Source: Chitinophagaceae bacterium
GTDB lineage: Bacteria > Bacteroidota > Bacteroidia > Chitinophagales > Chitinophagaceae
DNA: 64,000 bases
Assembly: GCA_013140985.1 (NCBI GenBank)
Contig: JABFRU010000011.1
Span: 62,001-126,000, forward strand
Direction: 5' to 3'
The position numbers were made by a program, and so were the translations under genes. Shown here piece after piece: positions 30,877 through 49,789 of this stretch (its first letter is position 1; each line of letters opens with the position of its first letter). A model generated the notes under the pieces. It ran no database searches, had not been told where the DNA came from, and saw nothing but the letters and a program-made list of their open reading frames with translations.

Positions 30877-30972
30877 CATTTCGTAAACCCCCTTCGTAAT
30901 TTTCTTTTGGATTGCCCGGCTACTTAAAGGGTTCGGGCATTGAATTTGATACTTTACAGCAAACCATTTGCT

Positions 30973-32658
30973 ATGAAGAAAGTTCTATTCTCTCCGCTTG
31001 CGGTCTTATTCTTTTTTATATTTCAGTCAAACACAACAACCGCTCAGCCGGTTCTTACATTTAATAGTTTTGCTTCTGGTTTGTCATCGCCGGTTGATAT
31101 CACCAATGCAGGTGATGGAAGTAACCGGTTATTTATTGTACAACAAGGTGGAACTATACGCATACATGATGGCACATCGCTATTGGTAACTCCCTTCCTC
31201 AATATCAGCAGCATCATTACTTCCGGGGGCGAAAGAGGTTTACTCAGTCTCGCTTTTCATCCTGATTATGAAACTAATCGTTACTTTTTTGTTTACTATA
31301 CCAATCTCAGTGGCGATATCACTATTGCCCGTTATCAAACACAAGCCGGTGATCCTAACCTGGCTGATCCGCTGAGTGGTGTAGTATTATTAAACATACC
31401 AAAGCCCTTTTCCAATCATAATGGCGGTGATCTGAATTTTGGCCCTGATGGTTATTTATATTTTGCAACGGGTGACGGGGGCAGCGGTGGCGATCCGAAT
31501 AATTATGCCCAAACCGGCACTTCATTATTGGGGAAGATGATCCGCATTGATGTAAGTAATTTTTCAACTGCACCCTATTATTTTATTCCTGCTGATAATC
31601 CTTATGTGGCCGATCCGCTGGTAGATGATCGTATATGGGCTCTTGGTCTTCGCAATCCATGGCGCTGGAGTTTTGACAGATCAACAAATGATATGTGGAT
31701 CGCTGATGTGGGGCAGGGTGCATGGGAAGAAGTGAATTTTCGCTCAACCGGAGCAACCGGGGGTATCAATTATGGCTGGCGTTGCTATGAAGGCAATGCT
31801 GCATACAATACAGCCGGTTGTCAGCCGCAAAGCAGCTACATCTCTCCCATTTTTGTCTATCCGCATTCGTTTGCTACGGGAGGATTTTCCATCACTGGTG
31901 GTTTTGTGTATCGGGGTGCTGAACATGCAGGGCTTTTTGGTTATTATATCTGCGCCGATTATGTATCCGGAAATGTTTGGCTTATTAATCCTGATGGCGG
32001 TGGCGGATGGACAGCAACTATGCAATCCGGTTTGCCGGGAAATATTTCTGGTTTTGGCGAAGCAGAAGATGCGACACTATTTGCTGTATCGCTGGGCGGA
32101 ACTGTTTATAAAGTAGATCTGTCCGTAGTATTTCCTTTTACATTACTTTCTTTCAGTGGTCATAAAATGAATGGATACAATGAGCTGAAATGGAAAACAA
32201 GTGATGAGCAAAACATGAACAGGTATATTGTTGAGTACAGTACCGATGGTGTGTATTTCCAGTATGGTGGCGAGGTGGCGGCCCGCAACCAACCCGGTGT
32301 TCAGCAATATCGTTTCATGCATTTTACTACCGGGTCAGGAAAAATATTTTATCGATTGAAAGCCGAAAACCTGGATCGTTCTATTAATTATTCTGCTGTA
32401 ATTGGCATTGATCTGAAAGAAGGTCATATTAAAGTTTCGCCAACTTTTATTTCAGATAATTTACTTCGTATTTCATCTGAAAAAGTGATGAACAGGCTAA
32501 TTATCACTGATAGTTACGGAAGAATAGTATTAAGGAAAGAATTAAACGGTCAGCAAGGTTTTTTAACAGTACAGCTGCCAACAGTAGCAAAGGGTATGTA
32601 TTGGGTAAAATTTGAAACGGCTACAGGCTTTGAAGTGTTCAGGATCGTAATTGGCTGA
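30973..32658 (+). CDS. PQQ-dependent sugar dehydrogenase (GSDH-like), secreted, with T9SS type A sorting domain
   Basis: FASGLSSPVDITNAGDGSNRLFIVQQGGTIRI, ERGLLSLAFHPDYETNRYFFVYYT, HNGGDLNFGPDGYLYFATGDGGSGGDPNNYAQ; C-terminal sorting domain. Confidence 0.92.
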   Translation: MKKVLFSPLAVLFFFIFQSNTTTAQPVLTFNSFASGLSSPVDITNAGDGSNRLFIVQQGGTIRIHDGTSLLVTPFLNISSIITSGGERGLLSLAFHPDYETNRYFFVYYTNLSGDITIARYQTQAGDPNLADPLSGVVLLNIPKPFSNHNGGDLNFGPDGYLYFATGDGGSGGDPNNYAQTGTSLLGKMIRIDVSNFSTAPYYFIPADNPYVADPLVDDRIWALGLRNPWRWSFDRSTNDMWIADVGQGAWEEVNFRSTGATGGINYGWRCYEGNAAYNTAGCQPQSSYISPIFVYPHSFATGGFSITGGFVYRGAEHAGLFGYYICADYVSGNVWLINPDGGGGWTATMQSGLPGNISGFGEAEDATLFAVSLGGTVYKVDLSVVFPFTLLSFSGHKMNGYNELKWKTSDEQNMNRYIVEYSTDGVYFQYGGEVAARNQPGVQQYRFMHFTTGSGKIFYRLKAENLDRSINYSAVIGIDLKEGHIKVSPTFISDNLLRISSEKVMNRLIITDSYGRIVLRKELNGQQGFLTVQLPTVAKGMYWVKFETATGFEVFRIVIG

Positions 32659-33148: not shown

Positions 33149-33179
33149 AAATAAAAAGCCCCGGCGAAGTTCACCGGGG
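33149..33179 (-). terminator. Rho-independent terminator closing the five-gene surface-protein operon
   Basis: CCCCGG (33159-33164)/CCGGGG (33174-33179); minus-strand GGGGCTTTTTATTTTT tail. Confidence 0.75.
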
Positions 33180-33210: not shown

Positions 33211-34185
33211 TTAATTTCTTTTCCAGGGTATGTCGAGTATTCTTGCCGACGGTCCCGATTTTCTTATGTCTGCCGGCCGCCTGTCAACAAAAAATATAAT
33301 GGGTTCGGTAATTCCGTCACCATTCACATCGCCATCACCAAAGGGACGGCCCTGTGAATCGAATGTTTGAATGGTCCATATAAATGCATAAGCATCCGGC
33401 TCCATATCCGGGCCGATCGTTCTTCTCGTTGTGTCTTTCAATCTTTCTGCATCTCCATCATCATCTGTATCTATGCAACATTTTGTCATTCCCAATTGCG
33501 GCTGCCATATATATTGCGTAGTGCCAACAACATCTTTTGCCAGCAAAGGTTGATTGCTCCGCAATGCCTGCATAGCTGTTTGATTTTCCAATATCTCAAA
33601 AACAGTAACACGATAGGTAATGATCTCTGCAGGTCTTGGTGATACGGGTGTCCAGCGGAAAGTAATTGTTGATTGCGCTTTTTCGATATCCAATACCGAT
33701 TCATTAGCCGGCATCATGGGTATCGGTAATTGATATGCGGCAATATTGAAATTCCTGCATCGTACTTCGCTCAATACACGGTAATCAATTTGATTTACCA
33801 ATTGCACACATATTTGATAATTATCTGCCGGAAGCTTTCCCGTTTTGTCCAATGACGATTTGAATTTACCATTGAAGATCATTACATCAAGCGGCAGGAC
33901 ATCCGCTGCATATAATATAAGACTGCTTCCTCCCACATTTATCGGTCTTGCCCTGGCAAGATCGGTAGTGCCCACCACTGTTCCATCAAGCAATTTTATT
34001 TCTGTTTTGATCAATGCTTTAAAACTTACACCAATCGGGCTGGAAACAATATAGGTGAGTGTCTTAATGTCCCAGTCTATCAAAGTGCCTGGCGGCATCG
34101 GTACTATCGTAAGTTGTGTGCTCAGTTGTGCCAGAGATGTTTTAGTAACAAAACAAATGGCTGCTATTAGAAATAATTTTTTCAT
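33211..34185 (-). CDS. Secreted protein with FRWTP...YRVTVFEI module and acidic DTDDDGD / DGDVNGDG loops
   Basis: Signal peptide; ITFRWTPVSPRPAEIITYRVTVFEILENQTAMQALRSNQPLLAKDVVGTTQYIW similar to modules in 41515..44232 and 44270..45859. Confidence 0.8.
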   Translation of the reverse strand: MKKLFLIAAICFVTKTSLAQLSTQLTIVPMPPGTLIDWDIKTLTYIVSSPIGVSFKALIKTEIKLLDGTVVGTTDLARARPINVGGSSLILYAADVLPLDVMIFNGKFKSSLDKTGKLPADNYQICVQLVNQIDYRVLSEVRCRNFNIAAYQLPIPMMPANESVLDIEKAQSTITFRWTPVSPRPAEIITYRVTVFEILENQTAMQALRSNQPLLAKDVVGTTQYIWQPQLGMTKCCIDTDDDGDAERLKDTTRRTIGPDMEPDAYAFIWTIQTFDSQGRPFGDGDVNGDGITEPIIFFVDRRPADIRKSGPSARILDIPWKRN

Positions 34186-34236
34186 ACTTTTTTATTTAAC
34201 CCCCGTCAGCGTTTTCAACGGCTGGTAGGGTAATTA

Positions 34237-35976
34237 TCATTTACCAAATCTGTAAAGCAATCCTGTGCGGACATTGCTTTCGAGATAGCTTGCATTATTA
34301 GGTGTTATTTCATTGCCGTATTTAAATTGGTTGGTACATACAAAAACATTCCATGTCACCCGATCAGAGATTTTCCAATCATCACTGAATGTGAAAATGA
34401 TATTATTGTTGCCCTTAAAACTATTGGTCTTTGAATAGTTGTATTGCAATTGTGCCCGCAGGTTCATTTTCTTTTTGGCCGCCTGCATGGAAGCTCCTGC
34501 GCTAACAGTAAATAATGTCAATTTAAACCCGGGTACTGAATTATAGAAATACATAGCTGTAAAGTCAGGAGATATATTTCCTTTTAAAAATGTAGGTACA
34601 TAGGTAAGCAGGCCCGTGTGTGTATTGTTAGATGTAGTAAGGCCTGTCAGCACATCTCTTTCTTCATACTTGCTGTAATTATAATTCAGGCTGAGCAAGT
34701 GGATCACTTTATCATTACCCCATGTGTAGGATGGATTGATACCAAGATCATTGCTTACATTTTTTATTCCATAAGGATTAATACCTCCGGGTGCCTGGAA
34801 TCCAAAATTGTTAAAGCTGATATTCAGATTCCAGTGATCATTGAACTGTGTGAACCAGTTCAGGTTGCCAATAAATTGTTTAGCCCTGAGTGTTGTATTG
34901 CTCACATTGTTCACCCGTTGACCAATACTTGCTACCACATTCATTTTGTGGCCGCCATTTTTATCTTTCACCGCATTGAATCTTGTATTCAATGTATAAT
35001 CAAATCTGTCGGGCAATAAAAAAGGATAGCCCGGTGTTTGAAATCCCGCACCCAGGTATTTAAGCTTTATACCAATATCAACGTTCTGCGTCTTTCTTCC
35101 TGCACCAAAGTCAGCGGCATAATCCTTTACGGTAGATGTATGTCCGTCAATAAAAGGTTTGAATGATGGCTTGCTGCTATCCTGCGGAAGCAATAGATTT
35201 TTTGTATAAATAGATTGTGCTGCTTCTCCATTCACATACCATCCGCCTTTTATCATTGCCTTTCCGGATACACTCATCGTAAATCCTTCCTGGGGATTGA
35301 TCCCAACTGGCGGCGTGTTGACAGATGTTGTATCATCTTTTGCTTTTACAAAATTAACCGCCGCTTCATATTTGCCTTCTTTTGCCACACCCAGCGAAGA
35401 CATCCAGTTCCATCGCTGATACGAACCGGTAGTTGCCGGCGGGCCTGTAAAAAAGTTTATGCCTTGTTGTGATACCCCGGTAAAAAATTTGATCATGAAT
35501 ATTCCCGGGCGAAGATCAACACCTCCGCCAAACACGCCAATATCGCCGGTGCTAAGCGCTGAATAATTCAAGTATTGTGTTCCTAATTGAAGCTCTGCCC
35601 ACTTATATTTTGGATTTAATCCAAAACTATTCATCGGGTTGGTGATGAACTGGCCAAAGCTTTGTTTGCTTATTCCGCTATAAGGTCCCGCATAATTTGT
35701 CGGCTTCATTGCAAAATTGAAATTGAAAGGCAGCGAGAAATTTTTTCCAAACTTCATGTTCGGGGAAAAATTAAACCGTACCTGGTTCCAGGGTTTGCGG
35801 GGCATAAATCCTGTCCAGCCGCCGGGTTTGCGATGCAATCCATAATATTCATAACTCACTCCCATAGTACCGCTGATACTGAGTTTTCCTTTTGCAGAAT
35901 CTTCTTGTGCATCGGCAACATTAAAGCAGCCAATGAATAGCAGAAAGATGATCGGTGGTTTTATTAGCTTTCTCAT
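34237..35976 (-). CDS. Putative outer-membrane beta-barrel protein
   Basis: Signal peptide (FNVADAQ), alternating beta-strand-like composition, ends in ...RTGLLYRFGK. Family not recognised. Confidence 0.65.
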   Translation of the reverse strand: MRKLIKPPIIFLLFIGCFNVADAQEDSAKGKLSISGTMGVSYEYYGLHRKPGGWTGFMPRKPWNQVRFNFSPNMKFGKNFSLPFNFNFAMKPTNYAGPYSGISKQSFGQFITNPMNSFGLNPKYKWAELQLGTQYLNYSALSTGDIGVFGGGVDLRPGIFMIKFFTGVSQQGINFFTGPPATTGSYQRWNWMSSLGVAKEGKYEAAVNFVKAKDDTTSVNTPPVGINPQEGFTMSVSGKAMIKGGWYVNGEAAQSIYTKNLLLPQDSSKPSFKPFIDGHTSTVKDYAADFGAGRKTQNVDIGIKLKYLGAGFQTPGYPFLLPDRFDYTLNTRFNAVKDKNGGHKMNVVASIGQRVNNVSNTTLRAKQFIGNLNWFTQFNDHWNLNISFNNFGFQAPGGINPYGIKNVSNDLGINPSYTWGNDKVIHLLSLNYNYSKYEERDVLTGLTTSNNTHTGLLTYVPTFLKGNISPDFTAMYFYNSVPGFKLTLFTVSAGASMQAAKKKMNLRAQLQYNYSKTNSFKGNNNIIFTFSDDWKISDRVTWNVFVCTNQFKYGNEITPNNASYLESNVRTGLLYRFGK

Positions 35977-35979
35977 GTG

Positions 35980-38900
35980 TTAGAATGGCTTCTTGCTTTT
36001 TATTACAAATTCGAAACAGGCGATCACTTCACATTCCTTGCAATGCTCATCCCGGAAAGTGAACTTCACACAGATCCTTCCTTTGAACTCACAACAATCA
36101 ATAGCTGGTGGCGGCGGCAACAGGAAGTTCATAGCTATCGGTGAATTATTATTAAGAATAAATGTACTGCCATTGCTCCATACTATTTCTCTCGGATTCT
36201 TATATACTCCCGGTCCTGTTGGATTGAATGGATGAACTGTTGAATTAAACATAGTGATCTTAGGCTGTGCCGCCGGTATGCCAATACTGTTTGCTGATAA
36301 AACACTGGCCCATGTGTAGGGAAGGTTCACACACTTCATACATTCCTTATTATAATTATCAGTAATTGTATAACTCAGTACTTCGGCCCTTACTTCTGTC
36401 AACGGCACTCCTGCCAGCCCATTGATCACAAAATTTTCGCTGATCACTGTGGCATTGTATTGCTGGTTAAAGTTAGAAGTGATCTTTGTTGTATCAACCT
36501 TGATAGCATAAGGACAACAACTGGTATCCTTCGGACATTCTGTTCTGAACCTTACAACACAGCTATCACATTTTGCCGTGCCGCACCAACCGTATAATGT
36601 AACAGTATAAATTCCTGTTTGATTCGGAATGAATGTCAGCGGTGCATTACCAGAGATCGGTGACCCGCTTGGCATCTGCAATGTATAAGTAACATTGGCC
36701 GGGCAATTGTTGGGATCAGGACAAATATAAGTGGCCTGCACTGTTACCGGTTGATTGCATTTTACCGTATAATCCTTCTTACACTCAAATGGTTTACTTT
36801 GATTTTGCGTTGTATATGCTTTAGTTCCCCACTTGCTTCCTTTGCAATCACAGGCAGCCGGTTCGCAGTTTACGGTAAGGTCAATGACGCAACTATCGCA
36901 GATCTTATTTCCGCACCATCCATATAGTGTAAGTGTATAAACCCCGTTTTGTGAGAATGTATAACTGAACGCAACATTACCCGCTATTGGCGATCCGCTT
37001 GGCGGTTGTAGTGAATAAGTAACTTTCGGGGGACAATTCGCAGTATCCTTGCAGATATAGGATGCATTGAAAGTATAAGTCTGGTTGCATTTCAATACAT
37101 AGTTGTTCTTGCAGTTTAATTTTAAAGGTCCGCTGCCGCCGCCAGGGTTTCCAATATTTGCTTTCGCTTTGCCGGGAATGTTTTCTCCTTCTGTTAAAAT
37201 AATATCGCCCCAGCTGCTTTCATCACAATTACAGGTGTCACAGGAAGGAACAACAATTGAATAAGTAGCGCTGGTGTCTTTACAGCCTGTTATCGGATCA
37301 GTAACTACAATATGATAGGTTCCTGTTGCTGCAGGGCTATAGGTTGGGTTGGGTCCATTACTTCCAACCGCACTTCCATTTAAATACCATTGAATAGTAT
37401 AGTTCGATGCAAATTGCCCGATCAATGGTTTGGGTGCATAGATGGTGAAATTACCGGTAGAGTCACGACAGGTACATGGAATACTATCGCAATAATGAGG
37501 GAACAGGTCTGTCGGCGGCCTTGGATTGATCTTAATGCTCTTACTACTGGTACATCCGGTTACAGGATGAGTATAAGTGGCTGTATAAACTCCTGCAGAG
37601 AAAACAGTGATACTTGTTGTAGCCGCACCAGTATTCCATGTTATATTATTTGCGTAATTAGTAACAGCTAATGTGATCGGTACTCCTTCGCAAAGGCTGG
37701 CCGGTGCTGCAATGACAGGTTGTGCCGGAATGGGATTCACTGTTATCGTTAACGAGCAAGTATCAGAGCAACCATACTCATTGGTAAGTATAAGATTGAA
37801 TATGGTTGTAACGCCAACCGACGTCATATACATTTGCCCTGATGCCAATTGCGAACCGTAATTGCCATTCGCATACCAGTCGGAAGTATATCCCGGTAAA
37901 TGATTAGGACTGCTCAGCATTACATTACCCGGTCCGCATAATTTGGATGAAGGTGATGCGGCAATTAATGCTTTAGGTTTTGTAACCGCTTTTACTTCTA
38001 CTTTATTGCTTGTGCACTTACAGAAACCGGGGCCGGGGCCGGTGATCACTACACGATAGAAACCAACAACCGTAGTTGAATACGTTATCGTATTGTTTGT
38101 TCCCGGTGCTGCAACCCAGTTACCCGGAGATGATTCATACTCCCACAAATAAGTGGCGCCGGCAATATTGGGTGCTGTTAATGTAGCAGAACCACCCGGA
38201 CAGATATATCCTGGCAATATTGTGCAGGGTCCTATGCCGGGTTGTACATTGATGCTATCAGTAGCAGTGCAGGTATTTCCCAATCCATCAACAATGGTTA
38301 ATGTAACAGTGAATGGCCCTGATGAATTATAAATATGTGTGCTTGATGGAGTATAGGCAGTAAACCCATCGCCAAAATTCCATGTATAGCTTGTTATGGT
38401 AAAAGATGGTGAACCGGAAATACTGAATGTTGTTGGCACGCCTGTACAAACAGGAGATGGAACAACACTTATTGCCAATGGTACATAGTTGACGGTATGT
38501 GTTGCTGTGCTGGTACAGGTTACCTGTCCGTCATTGTAAGTGATCGTTAACGTAATTGTATAAGTACCGGCGTTGGCATAACAATTCGGTCCGGGATTTT
38601 GTGCTGTTGATGTATTACCATCACCAAAATTCCATAGGTAGCTTATATAAGATGGATTGGCGATAACTGTTGATGTGTTGGTCACATTCAAACATCCGTT
38701 ACAACCTAATGTATATAAGAATGCTGCCTGTATCGGAACAGTAACTGTTGTTGCGGTGCAATTACCGGTACAACTTGTCGGATTAGGTGAAGGAGGCCCT
38801 ACACAGAATGTAACGCAATAAACTCCTGCACTATTATATACATGTGTGACCGGCACGCCAGATGCACCAGTTGCTGTATTACCATCACCAAAATTCCAGG

Positions 38901-41508
38901 TGATAGTAGCACCAGTTGGGTTTGGCGTAGTGCCGGTGAAAGTATAACTGTTGCAGCTGTTCCTGACCACACTGGTGATCTGCGGAGTGTTTACATCCGG
39001 GCAACAAACTTTCTTCACATTAAATTGAAGATATTTTGTACAGTTACCATAGGTCACTATCACATAATAATTACCATGTGATGGTGTTGTATAGGTTGAA
39101 TTGGTAGCTCCGCCAATAAGTGAGCCCGAAGGATGTGTTCCGGTGTACCATTGATAAGTAAATGTTCCGGCAATTGGTTTTACTACTGTTACTCCAAGCA
39201 CTTCATTCGTTGCTGTTCCGTTACAGGTACCCACACCGCAGGTAACTGGTATGATCGCAAATGGATCTTCAACAATATAAGTTGCCACATCACTACAACC
39301 ACCTTTTGTAACAGTAACAGTATAAGTACCCGGTGTAGTAATATTATTGATGTTTGTCGGAGACCAGGTGATTGTTGCTCCGCCTGGCGCCCCGTTTACT
39401 GATAATGACACTCCTCCCGGAGAACAAATATCAATTCCTGATGCCACTATTGAAACATTGAACTTGGGCCAAACCTGTACACCTGTCAATGGTGTTGCAT
39501 TGCCACATGCTGTTGACGCATTGATAGTAGCAGGCCACGGACCTGTACCCGGAGTACCGTGCCATAGTACAGTAATATTGCTTGTTCCTTGTCCGGATAT
39601 GATCGTTCCCTGGCTGGCGGGAGAGATGCTCCATGTAATCGTTTCTCCCGGTGGCAAAGTGCCGCCTGTTAATGTATAGGTTCCGTTTCCATCCACACAT
39701 ACATTCATCGTGCCGGTTATGTTTCCAACTGTTGCAAGATTTACATTGAGTGTGGCAGGTGCTGATGGACATGATGGGAAACCATTGGCTTGCAGCACAA
39801 CAGATATCGTTCCCGGCACTGTTGCCCAAATAATATTGGCTGAATTACCTGTTGTTGTTGCAAGATTACCCGGTTGAAATGATCCGGATCCTCCTGTGAT
39901 CGACCACAAATAATGGTAACCGCTTGGTGCACTCGTACTCATTGTATAAGTGTACTGCGAACCGATACAAACTGTGATCGGGCCGTTGATAACTCCCGGT
40001 GTTAATGTAGGTAATACAGTGATCTTTATTTGCTGTGGATTTGCAATACCGCTGTTGCAATAAGTATTGGCCGTTTCAATTACCTGTACAGTATATGTTC
40101 CCGGAATTGTAAATATTGGGTTGAAGGTTGGTCCCGTGAATGTCAGTGGGCTTGCGCCGGTATTCACTGGTAATATGCTCCAGTTAAATGTTCCTGCTGC
40201 CGGAAATACGGAAAGGTTTGCTCCGGGAGGCCCTGTACAAACCGTCTGATCATAATAAGCCGTCCATTTATCTGATGGATTAATAGTGAGAGAACCACTG
40301 CTGCTGCAACAGATATGTTTGTTATCAAGATTAACGGTCAATTGATAAGTGCCCGGAGGCGCTGCTGACCAATTTATCCATACTGTATTATTATCGGGAT
40401 AGGTATTAATTAAATTATCATGATTGGTTGCGTTGGTAATATTGTTCAGCGTCCAGGTATAAAATGTTCCGGGTAACACTGGTAAAGTATAAGACGTTGT
40501 TGAAGTATTGCATGGACTTGTGTTACCAATAATAACAGGGTTCGTTGGAATGATCGGAACAGGAACAGATGCGATACATCCGCCGGGGCATTGCGCCTGT
40601 ATCTGACCTTGTGGAGTACCATTACCCCAAACAATAGTGATCGTATTCGCTGTTGATGCGATCATGGTTCCGCCCACAACAGGAAGCCATGTTACACTCG
40701 GGCAACCCACTGCTGTATATTTCACCGTATCACCCGGGCAGACCGTACTGATACAATCGATCTTCAATACTCCCGGTACAATAGTTACTTGCTTAGTTAT
40801 CGTATCTGCACAACATGTTTTGATCATTGTGCTTGAATCAGGAGGATTGCCGCCACTGCTGCTTACAGTGATAAAGCTGTAAGTGATCAGCGTAACCGTA
40901 TAGGTTCCAGGTGAATTATACTGATGCGTAACAGGAGTATTTCCTGAAACAGTAGCATAATTATTACTTCCGGAAGGAATATCTCCAAAATTCCAGGAAT
41001 ACATAAAGCTGCCGGAGTATGTTGTCGTTCCGGTAAATGTTATCGTAGAACCGGCGCAAACATTATTCGGTGTAAATGTAAAACCGGCAATGGGTTTGTC
41101 TTTCACTGTTACTTTAAGACAAGAGGTAAACACATTGCCCGATGGATCCGTTGCAGTAAGCGTCAATGTAAATATTCCTGTTTGCGGCCATGTGATGCTT
41201 ATACCCGGACTTGTATTGTTGGGATTGATCGTTACCGGCGCAGGCCCGGTCGCTGTCCAGTTGTAAGTCCATCCTCCTCCTGTTATGGAAGAAGCGTAGT
41301 TATAAGATACACCAAGGCATACAGCGACCTCCTTGCATTCTTTTCCATTGGAAATGCCGGCCTGGTCATGCGGATCTCTCTCATAACAGTCGTTGCCTTT
41401 GTATAAGATCTCTACCTGGTTACAGGTTTGTGCGGATAGTTTGTTATTCGTCGCAGTGAATAGTGCTGCAACGAAAAGCGTTATCGCTAAGATGATAGTC
41501 TTTTTCAT
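35980..41508 (-). CDS. Giant (1842 aa) secreted PKD-repeat protein with Cys-rich modules
   Basis: Signal peptide; many PKD-type 'YxWNFGDGNT...VTHVYNSAGVYCVT' motifs; two about 105-aa Cys-rich modules; Cys-rich C-terminal domain. Confidence 0.85.
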   Translation of the reverse strand: MKKTIILAITLFVAALFTATNNKLSAQTCNQVEILYKGNDCYERDPHDQAGISNGKECKEVAVCLGVSYNYASSITGGGWTYNWTATGPAPVTINPNNTSPGISITWPQTGIFTLTLTATDPSGNVFTSCLKVTVKDKPIAGFTFTPNNVCAGSTITFTGTTTYSGSFMYSWNFGDIPSGSNNYATVSGNTPVTHQYNSPGTYTVTLITYSFITVSSSGGNPPDSSTMIKTCCADTITKQVTIVPGVLKIDCISTVCPGDTVKYTAVGCPSVTWLPVVGGTMIASTANTITIVWGNGTPQGQIQAQCPGGCIASVPVPIIPTNPVIIGNTSPCNTSTTSYTLPVLPGTFYTWTLNNITNATNHDNLINTYPDNNTVWINWSAAPPGTYQLTVNLDNKHICCSSSGSLTINPSDKWTAYYDQTVCTGPPGANLSVFPAAGTFNWSILPVNTGASPLTFTGPTFNPIFTIPGTYTVQVIETANTYCNSGIANPQQIKITVLPTLTPGVINGPITVCIGSQYTYTMSTSAPSGYHYLWSITGGSGSFQPGNLATTTGNSANIIWATVPGTISVVLQANGFPSCPSAPATLNVNLATVGNITGTMNVCVDGNGTYTLTGGTLPPGETITWSISPASQGTIISGQGTSNITVLWHGTPGTGPWPATINASTACGNATPLTGVQVWPKFNVSIVASGIDICSPGGVSLSVNGAPGGATITWSPTNINNITTPGTYTVTVTKGGCSDVATYIVEDPFAIIPVTCGVGTCNGTATNEVLGVTVVKPIAGTFTYQWYTGTHPSGSLIGGATNSTYTTPSHGNYYVIVTYGNCTKYLQFNVKKVCCPDVNTPQITSVVRNSCNSYTFTGTTPNPTGATITWNFGDGNTATGASGVPVTHVYNSAGVYCVTFCVGPPSPNPTSCTGNCTATTVTVPIQAAFLYTLGCNGCLNVTNTSTVIANPSYISYLWNFGDGNTSTAQNPGPNCYANAGTYTITLTITYNDGQVTCTSTATHTVNYVPLAISVVPSPVCTGVPTTFSISGSPSFTITSYTWNFGDGFTAYTPSSTHIYNSSGPFTVTLTIVDGLGNTCTATDSINVQPGIGPCTILPGYICPGGSATLTAPNIAGATYLWEYESSPGNWVAAPGTNNTITYSTTVVGFYRVVITGPGPGFCKCTSNKVEVKAVTKPKALIAASPSSKLCGPGNVMLSSPNHLPGYTSDWYANGNYGSQLASGQMYMTSVGVTTIFNLILTNEYGCSDTCSLTITVNPIPAQPVIAAPASLCEGVPITLAVTNYANNITWNTGAATTSITVFSAGVYTATYTHPVTGCTSSKSIKINPRPPTDLFPHYCDSIPCTCRDSTGNFTIYAPKPLIGQFASNYTIQWYLNGSAVGSNGPNPTYSPAATGTYHIVVTDPITGCKDTSATYSIVVPSCDTCNCDESSWGDIILTEGENIPGKAKANIGNPGGGSGPLKLNCKNNYVLKCNQTYTFNASYICKDTANCPPKVTYSLQPPSGSPIAGNVAFSYTFSQNGVYTLTLYGWCGNKICDSCVIDLTVNCEPAACDCKGSKWGTKAYTTQNQSKPFECKKDYTVKCNQPVTVQATYICPDPNNCPANVTYTLQMPSGSPISGNAPLTFIPNQTGIYTVTLYGWCGTAKCDSCVVRFRTECPKDTSCCPYAIKVDTTKITSNFNQQYNATVISENFVINGLAGVPLTEVRAEVLSYTITDNYNKECMKCVNLPYTWASVLSANSIGIPAAQPKITMFNSTVHPFNPTGPGVYKNPREIVWSNGSTFILNNNSPIAMNFLLPPPPAIDCCEFKGRICVKFTFRDEHCKECEVIACFEFVIKSKKPF

Positions 41509-41514
41509 TGCAGT

Positions 41515-44232
41515 TTAATTTGATTTGTCTTTAGTTGGGTTATCTGTACCGCTTCCGGTATCTGTTCCTCCACCGCCTGTTGGAAGGCAGCCGGTCTTTT
41601 TCTTCTGGTAGCAAACTACTTTGCTGCAGACCGTACAGTCGGTGAATTCAATTTTGTACCGTATGCACCATCGGAACAAAGTGCTGCAACATGGCATAAG
41701 TGGTGTGGTGATGCCAATACTGAGGCTTGATTGCGGTCCGTTCCATTGCTGGCTGTTGGTACCATTCAAAAAATGTCCATACAGTGTTGCGTCTTTGTCG
41801 CAGGGAATGCACTGGTCATTCTCAGGTATCATTTCAAAATACACCAGTTCTGCTGTGATGGTCTTGATCGTTTTCGGCGGCGTAGTTGTAACAGTTATCG
41901 ATTGATTGAATGAAATGCCGCTGTTGGTAACAGATATCTGTCCCGGCGCTGGTGTCTTCAGTATAAAATTCTTTTCGTCACATGCGTCGCAGCGGCAATG
42001 CAATGTATCCGCTTCCACTTCTGTTTCCGTGATCGCATTGTCAACAGGATCTTCTGCTGCTACCCATATGCGGATGATCTTCGCTGTATCAATACAATTT
42101 ACCTGGCCAGTAAAGATCTGTGAGCCATTGCCCGGGATATTCACAGGAGGCAGAGGTGTAAGTGGTGATGGGATGATATTCGCTGTTACCCCGTTTATCT
42201 TATCGATCTTGATTTGAGTGATCTTGACAGGAGTGGCGAGGTTATTTTTTATTTTAAGATAGATATTTTGTTTGCCATCCTTACAGCATTCAACATTGAA
42301 ACTGTCAATTTGTATATCAATATCATTATTGGCAATTTTAAATACGGCTGGTTCGCTGGTACAGGTGCTGCGCCCTGATGCATCCATCATTTCAACAGCC
42401 CAGATAAAATCGCAGAGATAAGGTGGTTTGCAGGGACCCGTTAAAAAACTGCTTATAGTTACTTCATTTGCATTTCTTACTTCTCTTGTAACAATAGGAT
42501 TGTTTGTCTTCATCGCCTGTGTACCATTCTGTCCCTGCATCAGTTGCCATACCTTTAACCTGTAAGCAGGAGCTTCTCCCGCTGTTGATGCTTTTGTCCA
42601 TTTGAATGTTATTCCTTGTTTAGCATCTGCTAAGCGAAATTCTTTTTTGTCTTCCGGTAATGCATTGGCCGGGCATTTTGCCGGCTCTTCTTCTGTTATT
42701 TTAAATGTTGTCGGCTCGCTACTACAAGTAACAGCGCCTGATGCATCCATCATGTCAACAGCCCAGATAAAATCGCAGAGGTAAGGTGGTCTGCAGGGGC
42801 CTGTGTAAATTCCACTGACTGTTGCTTCTGAAATATCAACTACATCTTTTGTTACAATTGGGTTGTTGGTACGCATCGCTGCTGTTCCATTCTGTCCCTG
42901 CATCAATTGCCATACTTTCAAGCGGTAGGTTACCGGTTCCCGGGGCTTGGGTACCAATGCTGTCCAACGGAATTTTATTGATTTATCTATTTGTAATTCT
43001 TTAGGGTTGTATTGTGCTCTGTTCTCAGGCATTGTATTCGCCGGACACTTGGATGTTTCTCCTGTTATTTTAAATGTTGTCGGCTCGCTGCTACAAGTAA
43101 CAGCGCCTGATGCATCCATCATATCAACAACCCAGATAAAATCACAGAGATATGGCGGTCTGCAGGGACCGGTGTAAATACTGTTGATGCTTATTTCATT
43201 TACATTTCTTGCTTCTCTTGTAACGATAGGATTGTTTGTTCTCATCGCCTGTGTTCCATTCTGGCCTTGCATCAGTTGCCATACTCTTAGCCGGTATGTT
43301 GCAGCTTGTCCTGCTGTAGCGGTGTTTGTCCATTTGAAGGTTATCGCTTTGGCATCTGCCGGAAGAATTTCTTTTTTGTCTTGCGGCAATGTATTGGCCG
43401 GGCATTTCGAATTCTCTTCTGTTATGCCAAATGTATATGGCTCACTTGTCCCGTTATTATTCCCCATGGGTTTACCGGCACGGTTCAACGCTTGCACATT
43501 CCAGATAAAATCGCAGAGATAGGGCGGTCTGCACGGGCCTGTCAATATACTACTGACTGTCGCCTGCGTAAGATTATCAACATCTTTTTGTATCAATGGG
43601 GTATTTGTTCTCATGGCCTGTGTTCCTGTTTGTCCCTGCATCAGTTGCCATACTCTTAAGCGATAAGTAACGGGTTCTCTTGGTTTGGGAACTAATGGTG
43701 TCCAGCGAAACGTAACAGGGCCTTCCAATTGTGCCGGGCTAAATTTCTTTTCGCTCTCGGGAGTGATCAATGTAGGCGGCGCATATTCAACATTCGCTGG
43801 TTCTACTTTAAAGTCTTTGCATACTTCACGGCTGATAGCGATCTTATCGAGATTGAAGAACTGTGCGCAGATAGTATATGTGCCTTCTTTCAGTTCATGA
43901 CAGTTGGTAAGCATGCCCACCAGGTCGGCCGTATTGAAAGTTCTTACATCAAAAGGATCGATCGGTCTTGCGGTGGCGACTGTGGTACCACAGATCATAG
44001 CGCTGCCGCTTCTTATTTGTAAGACCAACAAGGTTTCTTTTATTCTTGCACCGGGCACTTTTTGTGCCACCAGTATCAGTGCGGCGGGGGTAGAGACCCA
44101 GCTGTCAACGGTTCCCGGTAAAGTGTTCTTTACCGTGAATGTGGGGATATTGATCTGGTTGAGCTGGCCTGCCTGGCCATTTGCTAACAAACAAAATGGC
44201 AAACAAAGCAGCAGGAGTTTTAGTTTCTTCAT
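41515..44232 (-). CDS. Secreted protein with four tandem FRWTP/WQLMQGQ/GPCxPPYLCDFIW modules and Cys-rich C-terminal domain
   Basis: Four about 120-aa repeats, each with YRL(R/K)VWQLMQGQ and TGPC(R/K)PPYLCDFIW; signal peptide. Confidence 0.85.
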   Translation of the reverse strand: MKKLKLLLLCLPFCLLANGQAGQLNQINIPTFTVKNTLPGTVDSWVSTPAALILVAQKVPGARIKETLLVLQIRSGSAMICGTTVATARPIDPFDVRTFNTADLVGMLTNCHELKEGTYTICAQFFNLDKIAISREVCKDFKVEPANVEYAPPTLITPESEKKFSPAQLEGPVTFRWTPLVPKPREPVTYRLRVWQLMQGQTGTQAMRTNTPLIQKDVDNLTQATVSSILTGPCRPPYLCDFIWNVQALNRAGKPMGNNNGTSEPYTFGITEENSKCPANTLPQDKKEILPADAKAITFKWTNTATAGQAATYRLRVWQLMQGQNGTQAMRTNNPIVTREARNVNEISINSIYTGPCRPPYLCDFIWVVDMMDASGAVTCSSEPTTFKITGETSKCPANTMPENRAQYNPKELQIDKSIKFRWTALVPKPREPVTYRLKVWQLMQGQNGTAAMRTNNPIVTKDVVDISEATVSGIYTGPCRPPYLCDFIWAVDMMDASGAVTCSSEPTTFKITEEEPAKCPANALPEDKKEFRLADAKQGITFKWTKASTAGEAPAYRLKVWQLMQGQNGTQAMKTNNPIVTREVRNANEVTISSFLTGPCKPPYLCDFIWAVEMMDASGRSTCTSEPAVFKIANNDIDIQIDSFNVECCKDGKQNIYLKIKNNLATPVKITQIKIDKINGVTANIIPSPLTPLPPVNIPGNGSQIFTGQVNCIDTAKIIRIWVAAEDPVDNAITETEVEADTLHCRCDACDEKNFILKTPAPGQISVTNSGISFNQSITVTTTPPKTIKTITAELVYFEMIPENDQCIPCDKDATLYGHFLNGTNSQQWNGPQSSLSIGITTPLMPCCSTLFRWCIRYKIEFTDCTVCSKVVCYQKKKTGCLPTGGGGTDTGSGTDNPTKDKSN

Positions 44233-44269
44233 AAAAGAGTTTTATCAGAAAAAAATCAAATCCTTTTTA

Positions 44270-45859
44270 TCATTTACACTCCAACCAGCCACAACCGGCA
44301 GAATGAAGTGGATTGTGGCAGTACACTGTTTTACAATTTTTACTTGGATCGTCGCCCCAGGACGGTATGCCCGGCTGATATGCGGATCCGGATATACTTT
44401 TGCTTCCCGCTACTACTACTTTTGGCGAAGGCATAGCTGTGCTTTGCTTCAATACTATCTCAACAATATTTCCGGCAGCATCATAAATAATTTTTTCAAT
44501 TGGCAGAGAAACAGGGTGTAAATCCTGTTTGGCGTTCATGCTTTTTGCCGTTGGCTGATTTTTGTCCAACTCTTTATCCAATGCTTTCGATTGAGGCTGA
44601 TTTTTGTCTAGTTCTTTATCCAATGCTTTCGATTGAGGCTGATTTTTGTCTAGTTCTTTATCCAATGCCTTCGATTGAGGCTGATTTTTGTCTAGTTCTT
44701 TATCCAATGCCTTCGATTGAGGCTGATTTTTGTCTAGTTCTTTATCCAATGCTTTCGATTGAGGCTGATTTTTGTCTAGTTCTTTATCCCGTCTTTGGGT
44801 AGCCCCTAATTTTATATCTACTCCATGCACAGGATCTCCATTCGCTAAGTTTTTTGATCCGAGTTTAATGTCAACACCATGAACGGGATCACCATTTGCA
44901 CTCACTGACTTAACTCCAAGCTTTACATCTACTCCATGTGCAGGATCGCCATTGGCATTAGTAGCCATTACAGTTACTATGATTTCGACGTTTTGTATTT
45001 GATCAACATCTTCTTTCTTTCCTTCAAATCCCAATTTGATATCAACACCATGGATAGGATCGCCCTGCGCACTGGCAGACTTGACCCCGAGTTTTACATC
45101 CACTCCATGTACAGGATCTCCGTTGGCGCTGACTGATTTAGTTACGGCTCCCAGTTTTACATCCACCCCATGTACAGGGTCTCCATTAGCATTCGTAACC
45201 TTTATCGCTGAACCCAGTTTTATATCAACACCATGCACCGGATCGCCGTTAGCATTTTTTGCGATCGCTCCTAATTTTATATCAACACCATGTATCGGAT
45301 CACATTTTGTTTCAAATCCCAATTTTATGTCCACGCCATGGATCGGGTCGCCCTGTGCATTCACTGACTTAGCTTCGTTGATCATAAATGAAAAGGCGCC
45401 GCTTCTTCCGTAACTCTTTGTTGCATCACTACTGCTGATCGCTTCTACAGCCCAGATAAAATCGCAGAGATAAGGAGGTTTGCAGGGGCCTGTCAATACT
45501 GTAACAGACGCCTGTGTTACGTTCGATACATCTTTTGTAACAACAGGTTGATTGGCGCTCATGGCTTGTGTGCCGTTTTGTCCCTGCATCAGTTGCCATA
45601 CTCTCAACCGATAAATGACCGGGCCTTGTGGTCTTGGTACTACCGGCGCCCAGCGAAACAGGATCGGTTTATTTATTTCAGTTGCTTCAAATCCTTTTGC
45701 ATCTGCGGGGCTGATCAGGTTGATCTGTCCGCTGCTATTGGGATTGCCTGTGTTGGTTTGCCCGGTTTCTGTTTTAGTGGGAGGATTATTTTCTTTTGTC
45801 CGCTGTGAAAAAGCGGCAAAGGATAAAGTGAGGAAGAGAATGGTAGTTAGCTTCTTCAT
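44270..45859 (-). CDS. Secreted repeat protein: one FRWAP/WQLMQGQ module, nine GDPxHGVDxKLG repeats, six DKELDKNQP repeats, Cys-containing C-terminus
   Basis: Signal peptide MKKLTTILFLTLSFAAFSQ (start proposed at 45859); repeats counted directly in the translation. Confidence 0.85.
   Translation of the reverse strand: MKKLTTILFLTLSFAAFSQRTKENNPPTKTETGQTNTGNPNSSGQINLISPADAKGFEATEINKPILFRWAPVVPRPQGPVIYRLRVWQLMQGQNGTQAMSANQPVVTKDVSNVTQASVTVLTGPCKPPYLCDFIWAVEAISSSDATKSYGRSGAFSFMINEAKSVNAQGDPIHGVDIKLGFETKCDPIHGVDIKLGAIAKNANGDPVHGVDIKLGSAIKVTNANGDPVHGVDVKLGAVTKSVSANGDPVHGVDVKLGVKSASAQGDPIHGVDIKLGFEGKKEDVDQIQNVEIIVTVMATNANGDPAHGVDVKLGVKSVSANGDPVHGVDIKLGSKNLANGDPVHGVDIKLGATQRRDKELDKNQPQSKALDKELDKNQPQSKALDKELDKNQPQSKALDKELDKNQPQSKALDKELDKNQPQSKALDKELDKNQPTAKSMNAKQDLHPVSLPIEKIIYDAAGNIVEIVLKQSTAMPSPKVVVAGSKSISGSAYQPGIPSWGDDPSKNCKTVYCHNPLHSAGCGWLECK
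44555..44790. repeat. Tandem 42-bp coding repeat (about 5.6 copies) encoding DKELDKNQPQSKAL
   Basis: Units at 44555, 44597, 44639, 44681, 44723 and partial 44765: CTGATTTTTGTCTAGTTCTTTATCCAATGCTTTCGATTGAGG with few substitutions. Confidence 0.95.
44806..45361 (-). repeat. Nine interspersed GDPxHGVDxKLG peptide repeats
   Basis: GDPIHGVDIKLG, CDPIHGVDIKLG, GDPVHGVDIKLG, GDPVHGVDVKLG x2, GDPIHGVDIKLG, GDPAHGVDVKLG, GDPVHGVDIKLG x2. Confidence 0.9.
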
Positions 45860-45973: not shown

Positions 45974-46750
45974 TCAGGATTTCCTCCTGATCCACTTCTC
46001 AAATCTTGCCAAGAAATCTTCCTTCCGCCTGGAAGCAACGGGAATTTCTTTTCCGTTCTCCAGCAGCACTTCACCACCGTTGCCTTTGACATATTCTTTT
46101 ATATAACCAAGATTGATGATATACTTGTCATGAATCCGGGTAAAATTATTTTCCGGCAATAATTTTTCGTATTCGCCCAATTGCCTTGACACAACGATCT
46201 TTTTATCATCCTTCATATAAAAATGAGTATAGTTGCCGCTGCTTTCGCAATACATGATGTCTGCGATCTTGACGAACAACAATCCGTTGCTGGTGGAGAG
46301 AGGGATTTTGTCCGGCGCTGATTGCCTTGAATTGTGCTCAAGCAAACTGAACAAATTCTTATTGACATTTTTCTCTTCTATTCTTTTGGCGGCCACATTT
46401 ACCGCTGCAATTAGTTTTTCTGTATTGATAGGCTTGGTAATATAGCCGGTAGCATGATGTTCAAAAGCTTCAATGGCATAATGGCTATAAGCGGTAACAA
46501 AGATCACTTCAAAAGGAATCGGCTCTAATTTTTTCAGCAGATCAAATCCATTCAGGTGCGGCATTTCCACATCAAGGAATAATAGCTGCGGCTGTTTATC
46601 TTCCAGTAATGTCAATCCTTTTTTTGCATCGCTTTCTGTCGCCACCACTTCCGCCTGCGGACAATGTGCCGCCAGCATTTTCTGGAGCAGCTGAATATTC
46701 TTCGGCTCGTCATCAATGATTATGGTGGAAATGGTTCTCATTAAAAACAA
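45974..46750 (-). CDS. LytTR family response regulator
   Basis: TIIIDDEPKNIQLLQKML; LFLDVEMPHLNGFDLL; LytTR domain IMYCESSGNYTHFYMKDDKKIVVSRQLGEYEKLLPENNFTRIHDKYIINL. Confidence 0.95.
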   Translation of the reverse strand: MFLMRTISTIIIDDEPKNIQLLQKMLAAHCPQAEVVATESDAKKGLTLLEDKQPQLLFLDVEMPHLNGFDLLKKLEPIPFEVIFVTAYSHYAIEAFEHHATGYITKPINTEKLIAAVNVAAKRIEEKNVNKNLFSLLEHNSRQSAPDKIPLSTSNGLLFVKIADIMYCESSGNYTHFYMKDDKKIVVSRQLGEYEKLLPENNFTRIHDKYIINLGYIKEYVKGNGGEVLLENGKEIPVASRRKEDFLARFEKWIRRKS

Positions 46751-46897: not shown

Positions 46898-49789
46898 TTA
46901 TGGTTTCAGTTCTAATGGTATGCTGACAATAATTGTTGTTCCGCTTGCAATTCCTGCTCCATCTTTTTTATCAATCACCTGTTGTTGTATATTATACAAT
47001 TCCGCTCTTCTCCTGCTCAACTGCATCCCCCGGCTCTGGTACTCAATATGCATACTGCTTTTTAGCTGCGCTGCTTTTTCTCTCCCGATACCGTTATCAT
47101 CTATTTCGCAAACAAGGAAGCCATCTTCTTTTTTCGCCCTGATACTTATCACACCTTTCTTATCCTCTAAAAACCTTACGCCGTGTCGTATCGAATTTTC
47201 TACATAGGGCTGCAACAACATGGCTGGTACATACGTTTGGAGTACATCAACACCCGGTTCCGCATTGATCGCATAATCAAACTTATCGCCGAATCTAAGT
47301 TTTTCCAATTGTAAATAAGTGTCTAAATATTTTATTTCTTCTTCCAGCGAAATAATGGCCGCATCTGCATTGTCCATCGTACTGCGGAGCAATTCAGAGA
47401 ATTTATCCAAATATTTATCGGCCTGTTCATAATTTTTATCATAGATAAATCCTTTGATAGAATTCAGGCAATTAAAAACAAAATGCGGGTTGATCTGTGC
47501 TTTCAATGCCTGCATTTCCAGTTCAGCGATCTTTTTTTCCGTTACCACTTTGGCTACTGCTGCTTTTTGCCTTTGTTTATTTCTTTTTTGTATAAAATAA
47601 ATAATGGCGCCGAATGAAAGGAAAACCAAAATGGTCCAGAATACCGGGTTTTTCCAGAAAGGTGTTTTGATCTTTATATTCACTGTTGCCTGCTGCTCCG
47701 ATGCGGTGCCATCTCTTTTAATAGCTCTTACTTTAATAGTATAGCTTCCCGGTGATAATTCTTTGAGTTCGATCTTATCTGTCTGTTTCCACTCGCCGTT
47801 GTTAACGCTATATTTAAATATGGGAACAAAACCGGTGAGATCCACGCCTGAGAATTCAATAGTAACATCATTCTTACTGAATGGTACGGAATAACTTTCT
47901 TTCAGCTCCTGGTCCTGCCCATTAATGCTGATGCGGGTAATGAATGTAGCAATATCAGCCACCGGCAATGAAAGATTGACCGGCAAATAACTGATCCCGC
48001 CACTGGTTGCCGTATAAATAGTATCGCTGTTGAATGTTATATCATTTACCTGTTCACCGATCAGTCCATCGGCTGTACCGAAATAGGTATTGCTGTAAGT
48101 GAATTTGTCATTGACAAATCCATAGTGAATTCTGTTCAACCCTTTATTAGTTCCAAGCCAGAGTTCTCCTGTCTTATTGCAAAAAAGAGATTTACAGATA
48201 TTGCCGGGAATATCGCTACCTAATGATAATGCAGCAATGAGCTTATCATCTTTCAGCGCTAACAATGAATCTGATCCTAATCCAACCCAGATAATATCAT
48301 CGGGAGAACAAGTCATCGTGTTGACCCGGTATCCAAATGTTTTTTGCTGTGAGCTAAATGCAAACAACGAATCTTTATCCCAACGGTACAGCCCATCATT
48401 GGAGCCGATATAAACTTTACCTGATCTGTTTGCAGTAATTGAAATGACTCTTTTGACAATGCTGTCCGTATATTTTTCTGTGTTGATATTATACTTTGAT
48501 GCCAGCGAGTGAGTGCCCATCGCCAATATGCTGTCATTCAGCAGCACGGCGGTTTTGGAAGCCTTGTTTTGTCCGAATGGAAATTTCTGTTTGATCTCCA
48601 ATGTTGTTCCATCCAAAAAAAATGAACCGGTTTGTGTAGATACATAAATCCCCTTTGAAGTATTGATGATCTTTCTTACCCATGCATCAATATTCCTGTT
48701 ATCCGTCAATGAAATGCGGCGGATATTATACAGCCCGTCATAGACAAATACTTCCCCATTATTGGTACCGGCAAGGATGCTCTTTGTTTTCAGCAATGCA
48801 TTGAAGTTTTGTTGTATCTCCGGAACACTGGTAAAAGAAGAAATTCTTTTTTGCTGGATCTTTATCAACCCGTTTTCCATGGTAGAAAGCCATGTGTTGC
48901 CTTCCCTGTCCTGCAATACATTTCTTACCTGCACCTGGTTATAGACATTTTCTTTAATATCGAGAGTGGCTGTGTCAACGAGATAAGTGTTGCCGCTGAT
49001 AGATGTTATCGCAAAGCCCTTGCTGGTGTTGCAAAAAATTCTTATTTCAAAAGGATATTCTTTCTCCCCGGTATTTTGAAAATTTCCTTTGTCATCTACG
49101 GTATAAGTAAGAATGCTTTTGCTGCGAACGAGAAACACTTTATTATTGATGTATTCTGCAGCGATGAGCACTGTCTTTAATGGAAGGCTGCGGGTAATTT
49201 TTCCATTGCTGAAATAGCGAATGGTATCTTCTCCAAAAAAAAGGAATTGATCCGGCGCATATTCTACGATCTTTTGAATCACTCCCGTTTTTGCAGGCAT
49301 GAATTCTTTATAAACAGTTGTTTTCCCCTTCTTATATATAAATAAATTGCGAAGATTATTGCTGAAAGCAATACCTCCATACCGAAGCACATGTACTTTG
49401 TGTGTATTGGCGAGATCGATCTTATTCAGCTCCGGGTCTGTATTTTCATTTTCGAAGCGGTCTTTTTTCTCATTGTAATAACAGGGCGACCGGCGAAATG
49501 GAATAGACCAGATAATGCCGCTGCTGTCAATAAAAAGATCAACTGTTTCATTATCGGTCAACCCTTTGGCAGTAGTGTATGTTTCAAATTTTCTTCCATC
49601 GAAGCGGCACAAACCATTTTCTGTGGCTATCCATAAAAAACCCCGTTTATCAATAGCAGTACGATAAACTGAATTGGACGATAATCCTTCTTTGGTAGTA
49701 TAGGTTATTACCTGCGTGGTTTGCGCTTTTACCTGTTGCTGGTAAAAAAATAAAATAACAATAATACTATGCTTAAGCAGTTGTCTCAT
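46898..49789 (-). CDS. Reg_prop two-component propeller sensor histidine kinase (LytS/YehU-type His_kinase)
   Basis: TTKEGLSSNSVYRTAIDKRGFLWIATENGLCRFDGR; ALKAQINPHFVFNCLNSIKGFIYDKNYEQADKYLDKFSELLR; LQPYVENSIRHG. Confidence 0.94.
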   Translation of the reverse strand: MRQLLKHSIIVILFFYQQQVKAQTTQVITYTTKEGLSSNSVYRTAIDKRGFLWIATENGLCRFDGRKFETYTTAKGLTDNETVDLFIDSSGIIWSIPFRRSPCYYNEKKDRFENENTDPELNKIDLANTHKVHVLRYGGIAFSNNLRNLFIYKKGKTTVYKEFMPAKTGVIQKIVEYAPDQFLFFGEDTIRYFSNGKITRSLPLKTVLIAAEYINNKVFLVRSKSILTYTVDDKGNFQNTGEKEYPFEIRIFCNTSKGFAITSISGNTYLVDTATLDIKENVYNQVQVRNVLQDREGNTWLSTMENGLIKIQQKRISSFTSVPEIQQNFNALLKTKSILAGTNNGEVFVYDGLYNIRRISLTDNRNIDAWVRKIINTSKGIYVSTQTGSFFLDGTTLEIKQKFPFGQNKASKTAVLLNDSILAMGTHSLASKYNINTEKYTDSIVKRVISITANRSGKVYIGSNDGLYRWDKDSLFAFSSQQKTFGYRVNTMTCSPDDIIWVGLGSDSLLALKDDKLIAALSLGSDIPGNICKSLFCNKTGELWLGTNKGLNRIHYGFVNDKFTYSNTYFGTADGLIGEQVNDITFNSDTIYTATSGGISYLPVNLSLPVADIATFITRISINGQDQELKESYSVPFSKNDVTIEFSGVDLTGFVPIFKYSVNNGEWKQTDKIELKELSPGSYTIKVRAIKRDGTASEQQATVNIKIKTPFWKNPVFWTILVFLSFGAIIYFIQKRNKQRQKAAVAKVVTEKKIAELEMQALKAQINPHFVFNCLNSIKGFIYDKNYEQADKYLDKFSELLRSTMDNADAAIISLEEEIKYLDTYLQLEKLRFGDKFDYAINAEPGVDVLQTYVPAMLLQPYVENSIRHGVRFLEDKKGVISIRAKKEDGFLVCEIDDNGIGREKAAQLKSSMHIEYQSRGMQLSRRRAELYNIQQQVIDKKDGAGIASGTTIIVSIPLELKP

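What the first reader, a model, noticed from the sequence alone, without database searches (positions are those of the whole stretch)
33211..45859. Candidate undescribed five-gene surface-protein operon built from shared modules
Seen: five minus-strand genes, with gaps of 37, 6, 3 and 51 nt, end at a clear terminator (33149-33179). All five begin with signal-peptide-like N-termini. Three of them share one module: one copy in 44270-45859, four in 41515-44232 and one variant in 33211-34185. The 1842-aa and 905-aa proteins share a Cys-rich C-terminal domain, and the fourth gene looks like an outer-membrane barrel. The organisation recalls TANFOR-domain-type surface proteins of Bacteroidota, but I cannot confirm family membership. 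Inference: a co-assembled extracellular structure or surface complex with its own barrel and its own LytTR/sensor pair upstream.
Basis: partly seen in the sequence, partly recalled or inferred. Interest (0 to 1): 0.85.

Follow-up and report, generated by a model that had tools for sequence, protein, structure and literature searches.

The report
TANFOR-type surface operon with unnamed barrel
Five adjacent bacterial genes appear to encode a surface fibre system built around a large, so far unnamed outer-membrane barrel; the same barrel family turns out to be the missing gene partner of a known class of Bacteroidota toxins (TANFOR proteins) whose way out of the cell is unknown.

Summary
In detail: five minus-strand genes (A-E), gaps 37/6/3/51 nt, one terminator. 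Shared modules (A 1, B 4, E 1 variant) and the Cys-rich end shared by B and C (identical Cys spacing) are real. B-C-D-E gene order is conserved in every related locus with enough flank, mostly Chitinophagaceae, also two Flavobacterium species. Gene A is confined to this genome. The LytTR/sensor pair is conserved only in part.

The TANFOR guess is half right. No protein matches the curated TANFOR model, but E is a full-length remote homologue of TANFOR N-termini (hhalign E 5e-23) and B a partial one. None carries a toxin domain.

Main new result: D is a predicted ~25-strand barrel with no Pfam/NCBIfam/PDB sequence family. Its family sits next to most TANFOR-like genes across Bacteroidia and co-occurs with them genome by genome (35 both, 7 TANFOR-like only, 6 D only, 248 neither; p 3e-32). 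The only TANFOR paper found in the library searched does not mention it.

Best reading: D plus a TANFOR-type adaptor is an outer-membrane unit that exports or anchors exchangeable giants. Here adaptor (E) and giant (C) are separate genes; elsewhere they are fused. Export mechanism is inferred, not shown.

The parts
44270..45859 (-). gene A, 529 aa: signal peptide, one module (aa 48-165), HGVD repeats, 14-aa repeats, Cys-containing tail; found only in this genome
45365..45718 (-). shared fn3-like module in A (aa 48-165)
   Evidence: matches four places in B, best E 7e-39
44803..45366 (-). nine DPxHGVDxKLG units in A
44553..44789 (-). 42-bp tandem repeat, 5.6 copies, 97% matches, in A (14-aa unit)
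41515..44232 (-). gene B, 905 aa: TANFOR-like N-terminal region, four modules, Cys-rich end
43408..43770 (-). module 1 of B (aa 155-275)
43072..43368 (-). module 2 of B (aa 289-387)
42628..42993 (-). module 3 of B (aa 414-535)
42310..42657 (-). module 4 of B (about aa 526-641)
41587..41997 (-). Cys-rich C-terminal domain of B (aa 746-882)
35980..41508 (-). gene C, 1842 aa: PKD and Ig_7 domains, Cys-rich end
   Evidence: Pfam PKD_4 8e-50, PKD 6e-48
35983..36576 (-). Cys-rich C-terminal domain of C (aa 1645-1842)
34237..35976 (-). gene D, 579 aa: outer-membrane barrel, about 25 strands, no plug domain
   Evidence: AlphaFold2 pLDDT 87; no Pfam/NCBIfam/PDB sequence family
35539..35670 (-). signature region of the D family (aa 103-146, consensus PFNxxGxSPxYKWxxxHLG), partly outside the strands
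   Evidence: 44-sequence alignment and its conservation profile
33211..34185 (-). gene E, 324 aa: stand-alone TANFOR-type adaptor, two Ig/fn3-like domains
   Evidence: hhalign to TANFOR N-termini E 4.9e-23; AlphaFold2 pLDDT 86
33159..33179 (-). intrinsic terminator
45974..46741 (-). LytTR response regulator, partly conserved neighbour
46898..49789 (-). Reg_prop / Y_Y_Y / His_kinase sensor, partly conserved neighbour

Best explanation
The operon encodes a surface-display system of the TANFOR superfamily. D is a dedicated, plug-less outer-membrane barrel of about 25 strands. E is a small TANFOR-type adaptor, encoded directly behind D, that docks to it. Together they export or anchor the operon's long proteins: C, a PKD/Ig fibre, and B, an adaptor-headed chain of modules; the Cys-rich end shared by B and C probably joins them to each other or to the D-E unit. 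In most other Bacteroidia loci the same adaptor domain is fused to the giant it serves (TANFOR giants and toxins), so this operon is a split, non-toxin version. Shown: homologies, gene order, co-occurrence, predicted barrel fold, absence of known T9SS sorting domains and toxin domains. Inferred: docking of E on D, transport or anchoring by D, extracellular location of B and C, role of the Cys-rich ends.
For: D-E adjacency in 32/32 loci and conserved B-C-D-E order. E and B are remote TANFOR homologues. D family beside TANFOR giants in 14 of 17 class-sample loci; 36 of 53 strong TANFOR-like places have D within 12 kb and 11 of the other 17 have D elsewhere in the genome; genome co-occurrence p 3e-32. 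Fission/fusion series: adaptor fused to giant (e.g. L048-L060), adaptor plus separate giant (window, L096), bridging loci with TANFOR giant, F, D and E (L150-L152). D and E diverge in step (r 0.85, against 0.60 for D and RecX). D is a confident large barrel without plug. No A-E protein has a type A or B T9SS sorting domain.
Against: No physical interaction is shown. T9SS is present in the genome and some D-linked loci include proteins with T9SS sorting domains (L104 partner; Flavobacterium giants), so D may only assist T9SS. Six genomes of the sample have D without a strong TANFOR-like gene. Foldseek similarity to known barrels is only size-class.
Confidence: 0.5

Rival explanations
1. T9SS-dependent variant: B and C leave through the SprA translocon using their Cys-rich end or the TANFOR-like domain as an unrecognised sorting signal, and D acts afterwards as shuttle or surface anchor, as PorP/SprF does for type B substrates.
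For: SprA (2380 bits) and 55 Por_Secre_tail matches in the genome; published guess for TANFOR proteins (PMC7073777); PorP/SprF barrels are encoded beside and needed by their own substrates (PMC9143113, PMC12618676); some D partners carry a T9SS sorting domain.
Against: No known sorting domain in A-E; D is not PorP/SprF by NCBIfam and has about 25 strands, not 14.
Confidence: 0.32
2. B and C stay in the periplasm as an envelope scaffold beneath D, and nothing is exported.
For: Only Sec-type N-termini are evident; no known outer-membrane export signal.
Against: Long PKD/Ig/fn3-like chains are typical of exposed proteins (general knowledge); the barrel is shared with TANFOR proteins, for which a periplasmic role was judged unlikely (PMC7073777).
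Confidence: 0.1
3. D is an uptake channel (for example for a polymer bound by B and C), and the TANFOR linkage reflects shared surface regulation rather than export.
For: Large barrels of Bacteroidota are often uptake channels; some Foldseek matches are TonB-dependent receptors.
Against: No plug domain or SusC/TonB-type Pfam match; no enzyme or binding-lipoprotein genes in the operon; linkage to toxins and giants of other kinds.
Confidence: 0.06

Closest known systems
TANFOR-domain polymorphic toxins of Bacteroidota (TIGR02542; Jana, Salomon and Bosis 2020, PMC7073777)
   Same: E and the N-terminus of B are remote homologues of the TANFOR region; the D barrel family adjoins TANFOR genes; PKD and fn3 proteins nearby, as in that paper's Table 1.
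   Different: TIGR02542 does not match A-E; no toxin domain and no immunity gene (the next gene is recX); adaptor and giant are separate genes; the barrel is not mentioned in the paper.
PorP/SprF shuttle barrels with type B T9SS substrates (SprB)
   Same: A barrel gene beside a giant repetitive surface protein in Bacteroidota.
   Different: PorP/SprF are 14-stranded FadL-type barrels and their substrates carry type B sorting domains; D has about 25 strands and no partner here has such a domain.
Chaperone-usher (FimD/PapC) and MtrB barrels
   Same: Nearest solved structures by fold; barrels of 24-26 strands that hold or pass a protein.
   Different: TM-scores 0.3-0.5 and about 10% identity; D has no plug or terminal usher domains, and no chaperone or multihaem partner is encoded.
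D-like barrel, ~370-aa adaptor and PA14/YD-like giant loci (L029, L225-L238)
   Same: Same pairing of a D relative with a TANFOR-like adaptor.
   Different: Barrel relative mostly longer (530-1090 aa), another kind of giant, and a LolA3-family gene in the four loci tested.

Membership tests
TANFOR domain family (TIGR02542) | match to the curated model over its 67-bit cut-off | tested here: not met
   no hit at E<=1 for A-E. Caution: none of the class or Flavobacterium TANFOR hits passes the cut-off in this search either
TANFOR domain family (TIGR02542) | homology to the N-terminal region of TANFOR proteins | tested here: met
   E over 268 columns, prob 99.5, E 4.9e-23; B in part, prob 98.6
TANFOR polymorphic toxins | C-terminal toxin domain and downstream immunity gene | tested here: not met
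   no toxin family in Pfam or NCBIfam for A-E; downstream gene is recX
T9SS substrate, type A or B | Por_Secre_tail (TIGR04183/PF18962) or type B sorting domain (TIGR04131) | tested here: not met
T9SS substrate, type A or B | T9SS present in the genome | tested here: met
   SprA 2380 bits, 55 Por_Secre_tail matches
PorP/SprF shuttle family | family model match and 14-stranded FadL-type barrel | tested here: not met
   no NCBIfam match at E<=1; about 25 strands; 14 strands per PMC9143113
chaperone-usher | plug and terminal usher domains, periplasmic chaperone gene | tested here: not met
MtrAB-type conduit | multihaem cytochrome partner (CXXCH motifs) | tested here: not met
   no CXXCH in A-E
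D barrel family defined here | homology over the barrel, signature PFNxxGxSPxYKWxxxHLG, linkage to a TANFOR-like or F gene | tested here: met
outer-membrane export unit | physical D-adaptor complex and D-dependent surface display of cargo | not testable with these tools
   no complex modelling or experiment available

The most novel reading that the evidence does not exclude
D plus the TANFOR-type adaptor is a previously unrecognised outer-membrane export or display system of Bacteroidota, distinct from T9SS, that serves several kinds of giant cargo: TANFOR toxins, PA14/YD-like giants of about 1900-2600 aa (with a longer D relative and a LolA3-family gene), and the modular PKD fibre of this window.
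Probability: 0.3. Interest if true: 0.9.

Novelty: new variant of a known kind. Interest (0 to 1): 0.68.

Why it matters
How TANFOR toxins cross the outer membrane is an open question; the published guess is T9SS. One unnamed barrel family linked to them across the class gives a concrete gene to delete. The split operon in this window puts barrel, adaptor and fibre in separate genes, so their roles can be tested one at a time.

Tried and rejected
TANFOR model in own genome and relatives: no hit, so homology was tested profile against profile. Membership of D in usher or MtrB families was rejected despite fold hits, and PorP/SprF was rejected. The Bacteroidota promoter pattern gave one chance-level match elsewhere and sigma-70 sites were at chance level, so no promoter is claimed. 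DUF2520, DUF481 and other weak Pfam hits of A-E were treated as chance. Fold search of E gave generic Ig/fn3 matches and PDB sequences only chance hits. Searches for TANFOR, its model number or such a barrel in papers found no description of the barrel.

Full report
Observation. The shared modules are real: A carries one, B four and E one variant. The Cys-rich ends of B and C are homologous with identical cysteine spacing, CC-x6-C-x9-C-x2-C-x4-C. All five begin like Sec-exported proteins and none has a lipobox. C is a PKD/Ig protein; A, D and E match no named family over cut-off, and B has only a marginal, unlikely DUF2520 hit.

Conservation. In the same genus the order sensor, regulator, B, C, D, E, recX recurs in several genomes. 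A scan of GTDB genomes gave 33 loci with a close D, mostly Chitinophagaceae MAGs (Ferruginibacter, Flaviaesturariibacter and unnamed) plus Flavobacterium erciyesense and F. muglaense. E follows D in 32 of 32 loci where the sequence continues. A TANFOR-like gene lies two genes upstream of D in 24 loci; three more (L134, L148, L159) have an extra gene; the rest end at contig edges. Gene A was not seen in any of them, and its repeat region was found in no other of 59 genomes. D is patchy: 28 of 199 genomes of the family, 41 of 296 of the class. A regulator or sensor adjoins about half of the operons with visible upstream flank (my count).

TANFOR link. The curated TANFOR model does not match. But an alignment of N-termini from class-wide TANFOR hits aligns with the whole of E (prob 99.5, E 4.9e-23) and with part of B; E and B align with each other. 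So E and B are remote members of the superfamily, not of the curated family. Jana et al. 2020 (PMC7073777) describe TANFOR proteins as polymorphic toxins and guess T9SS export; A-E carry no toxin or sorting domain.

The barrel. The neighbourhoods of 17 TANFOR hits show a D homologue immediately upstream, with at most a small ORF between, in 14. Conversely, 35 of 46 class-sample D loci have a TANFOR-like gene within three genes, and 39 of 46 have either that or a third family, F (about 690 aa, fn3-like). Some of those loci had been chosen by TANFOR search, so I repeated the test from the other side with one adaptor profile over the same 296 genomes: 36 of 53 strong TANFOR-like places have D within 12 kb, and 11 of the remaining 17 have D elsewhere in the genome. 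By genome: 35 both, 7 TANFOR-like only, 6 D only, 248 neither; Fisher p 3e-32. The genomes are related, so the p-value overstates independence; on the other hand two of the seven exceptions (G121 in L240, G245 in L056) do have an adjacent D that the narrower profile missed. In Flavobacterium, TANFOR loci come in two forms: D, giant, F; and F, SprB-type giant with a T9SS sorting domain, TANFOR protein, small genes, a PKD-like lipoprotein, then D. The second form resembles the loci of Jana et al.; the word barrel does not occur in that paper.

Structure. D is confidently modelled (pLDDT 87, pTM 0.76) as a barrel of about 25 long strands with no plug domain. The closest solved folds are MtrB and the FimD/PapC ushers, with TM-scores of 0.3-0.5 and about 10% identity, so only the size class is informative. 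No PDB sequence is related. E is two Ig/fn3-like sandwiches.

Mechanism. Three lines suggest that D and the adaptor act together and that the giant is exchangeable: the invariant D-E pair; the correlated divergence of D and E (r 0.85 in 32 taxa, against 0.60 for D and RecX in 19 taxa); and the fission/fusion series from adaptor-fused giants to adaptor plus separate giant, with bridging loci L150-L152. A barrel of this size without a plug would leak unless filled, which fits a protein partner in or over it (inference). I favour D-E as an export or anchoring unit for B and C, confidence 0.5. The main rival is that T9SS does the export and D only shuttles or anchors, as PorP/SprF does, confidence 0.32. 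Sequence alone cannot separate them.

A further class. Small TANFOR-like adaptors of about 370 aa sit next to a 1900-2600-aa giant in the 14 such loci examined (L225-L238), and in nine of these a D-profile match of 530-860 aa lies nearby; one of them is another locus of the window's own genome (L225). A LolA3-family gene follows the giant in the four loci tested. This suggests that the D-adaptor pair serves several cargo types, and it underlies the novel case.

Limits. No complex modelling, no expression data; most genomes are MAGs; start codons are unverified; the profiles used for linkage were built from loci found here.

Noticed in passing
L225 (own genome, contig C39): 10560-12989, 9423-10526, 1582-9399, 780-1577, minus strand: A second barrel-adaptor locus in the same genome: D relative (809 aa), TANFOR-like adaptor (367 aa), giant with PA14 domain (2605 aa), then a LolA3-family gene (99 bits, over its cut-off).
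   Followed up: partly
L227, L234, L235 and L225: LolA3 is described as a LolA homologue whose deletion affected neither gliding nor amylase secretion in F. johnsoniae (PMC11885536). Here LolA3-family genes follow a giant in barrel-adaptor loci in four of four tested, which may point to their function.
   Followed up: partly
L052:16435-18561, L050:16620-18713 and about 30 further loci: A third family, F (about 690 aa, fn3-like), accompanies D and TANFOR giants; it has no named family over cut-off.
   Followed up: partly
L191:2494-3837, L196:2038-3381, L216:1319-2683: A 447-454-aa lipoprotein-like gene with PKD-type similarity sits directly beside D in Flavobacterium TANFOR toxin loci.
   Followed up: no
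window 44803-45366 and 44553-44789: Gene A carries nine DPxHGVDxKLG units and a nearly identical 42-bp tandem array; no relative of the first region was found in 59 genomes.
   Followed up: partly
L101, L103, L104, L106, L107, L113: D homologues next to an 818-1194-aa secreted protein instead of a TANFOR gene; the one tested (L104) has a T9SS type A sorting domain, and these genomes carry a TANFOR-like gene elsewhere.
   Followed up: partly
window 30940-32658, plus strand: Neighbouring 572-aa secreted protein has a weak, sub-cut-off T9SS sorting tail; it is not part of the operon.
   Followed up: no
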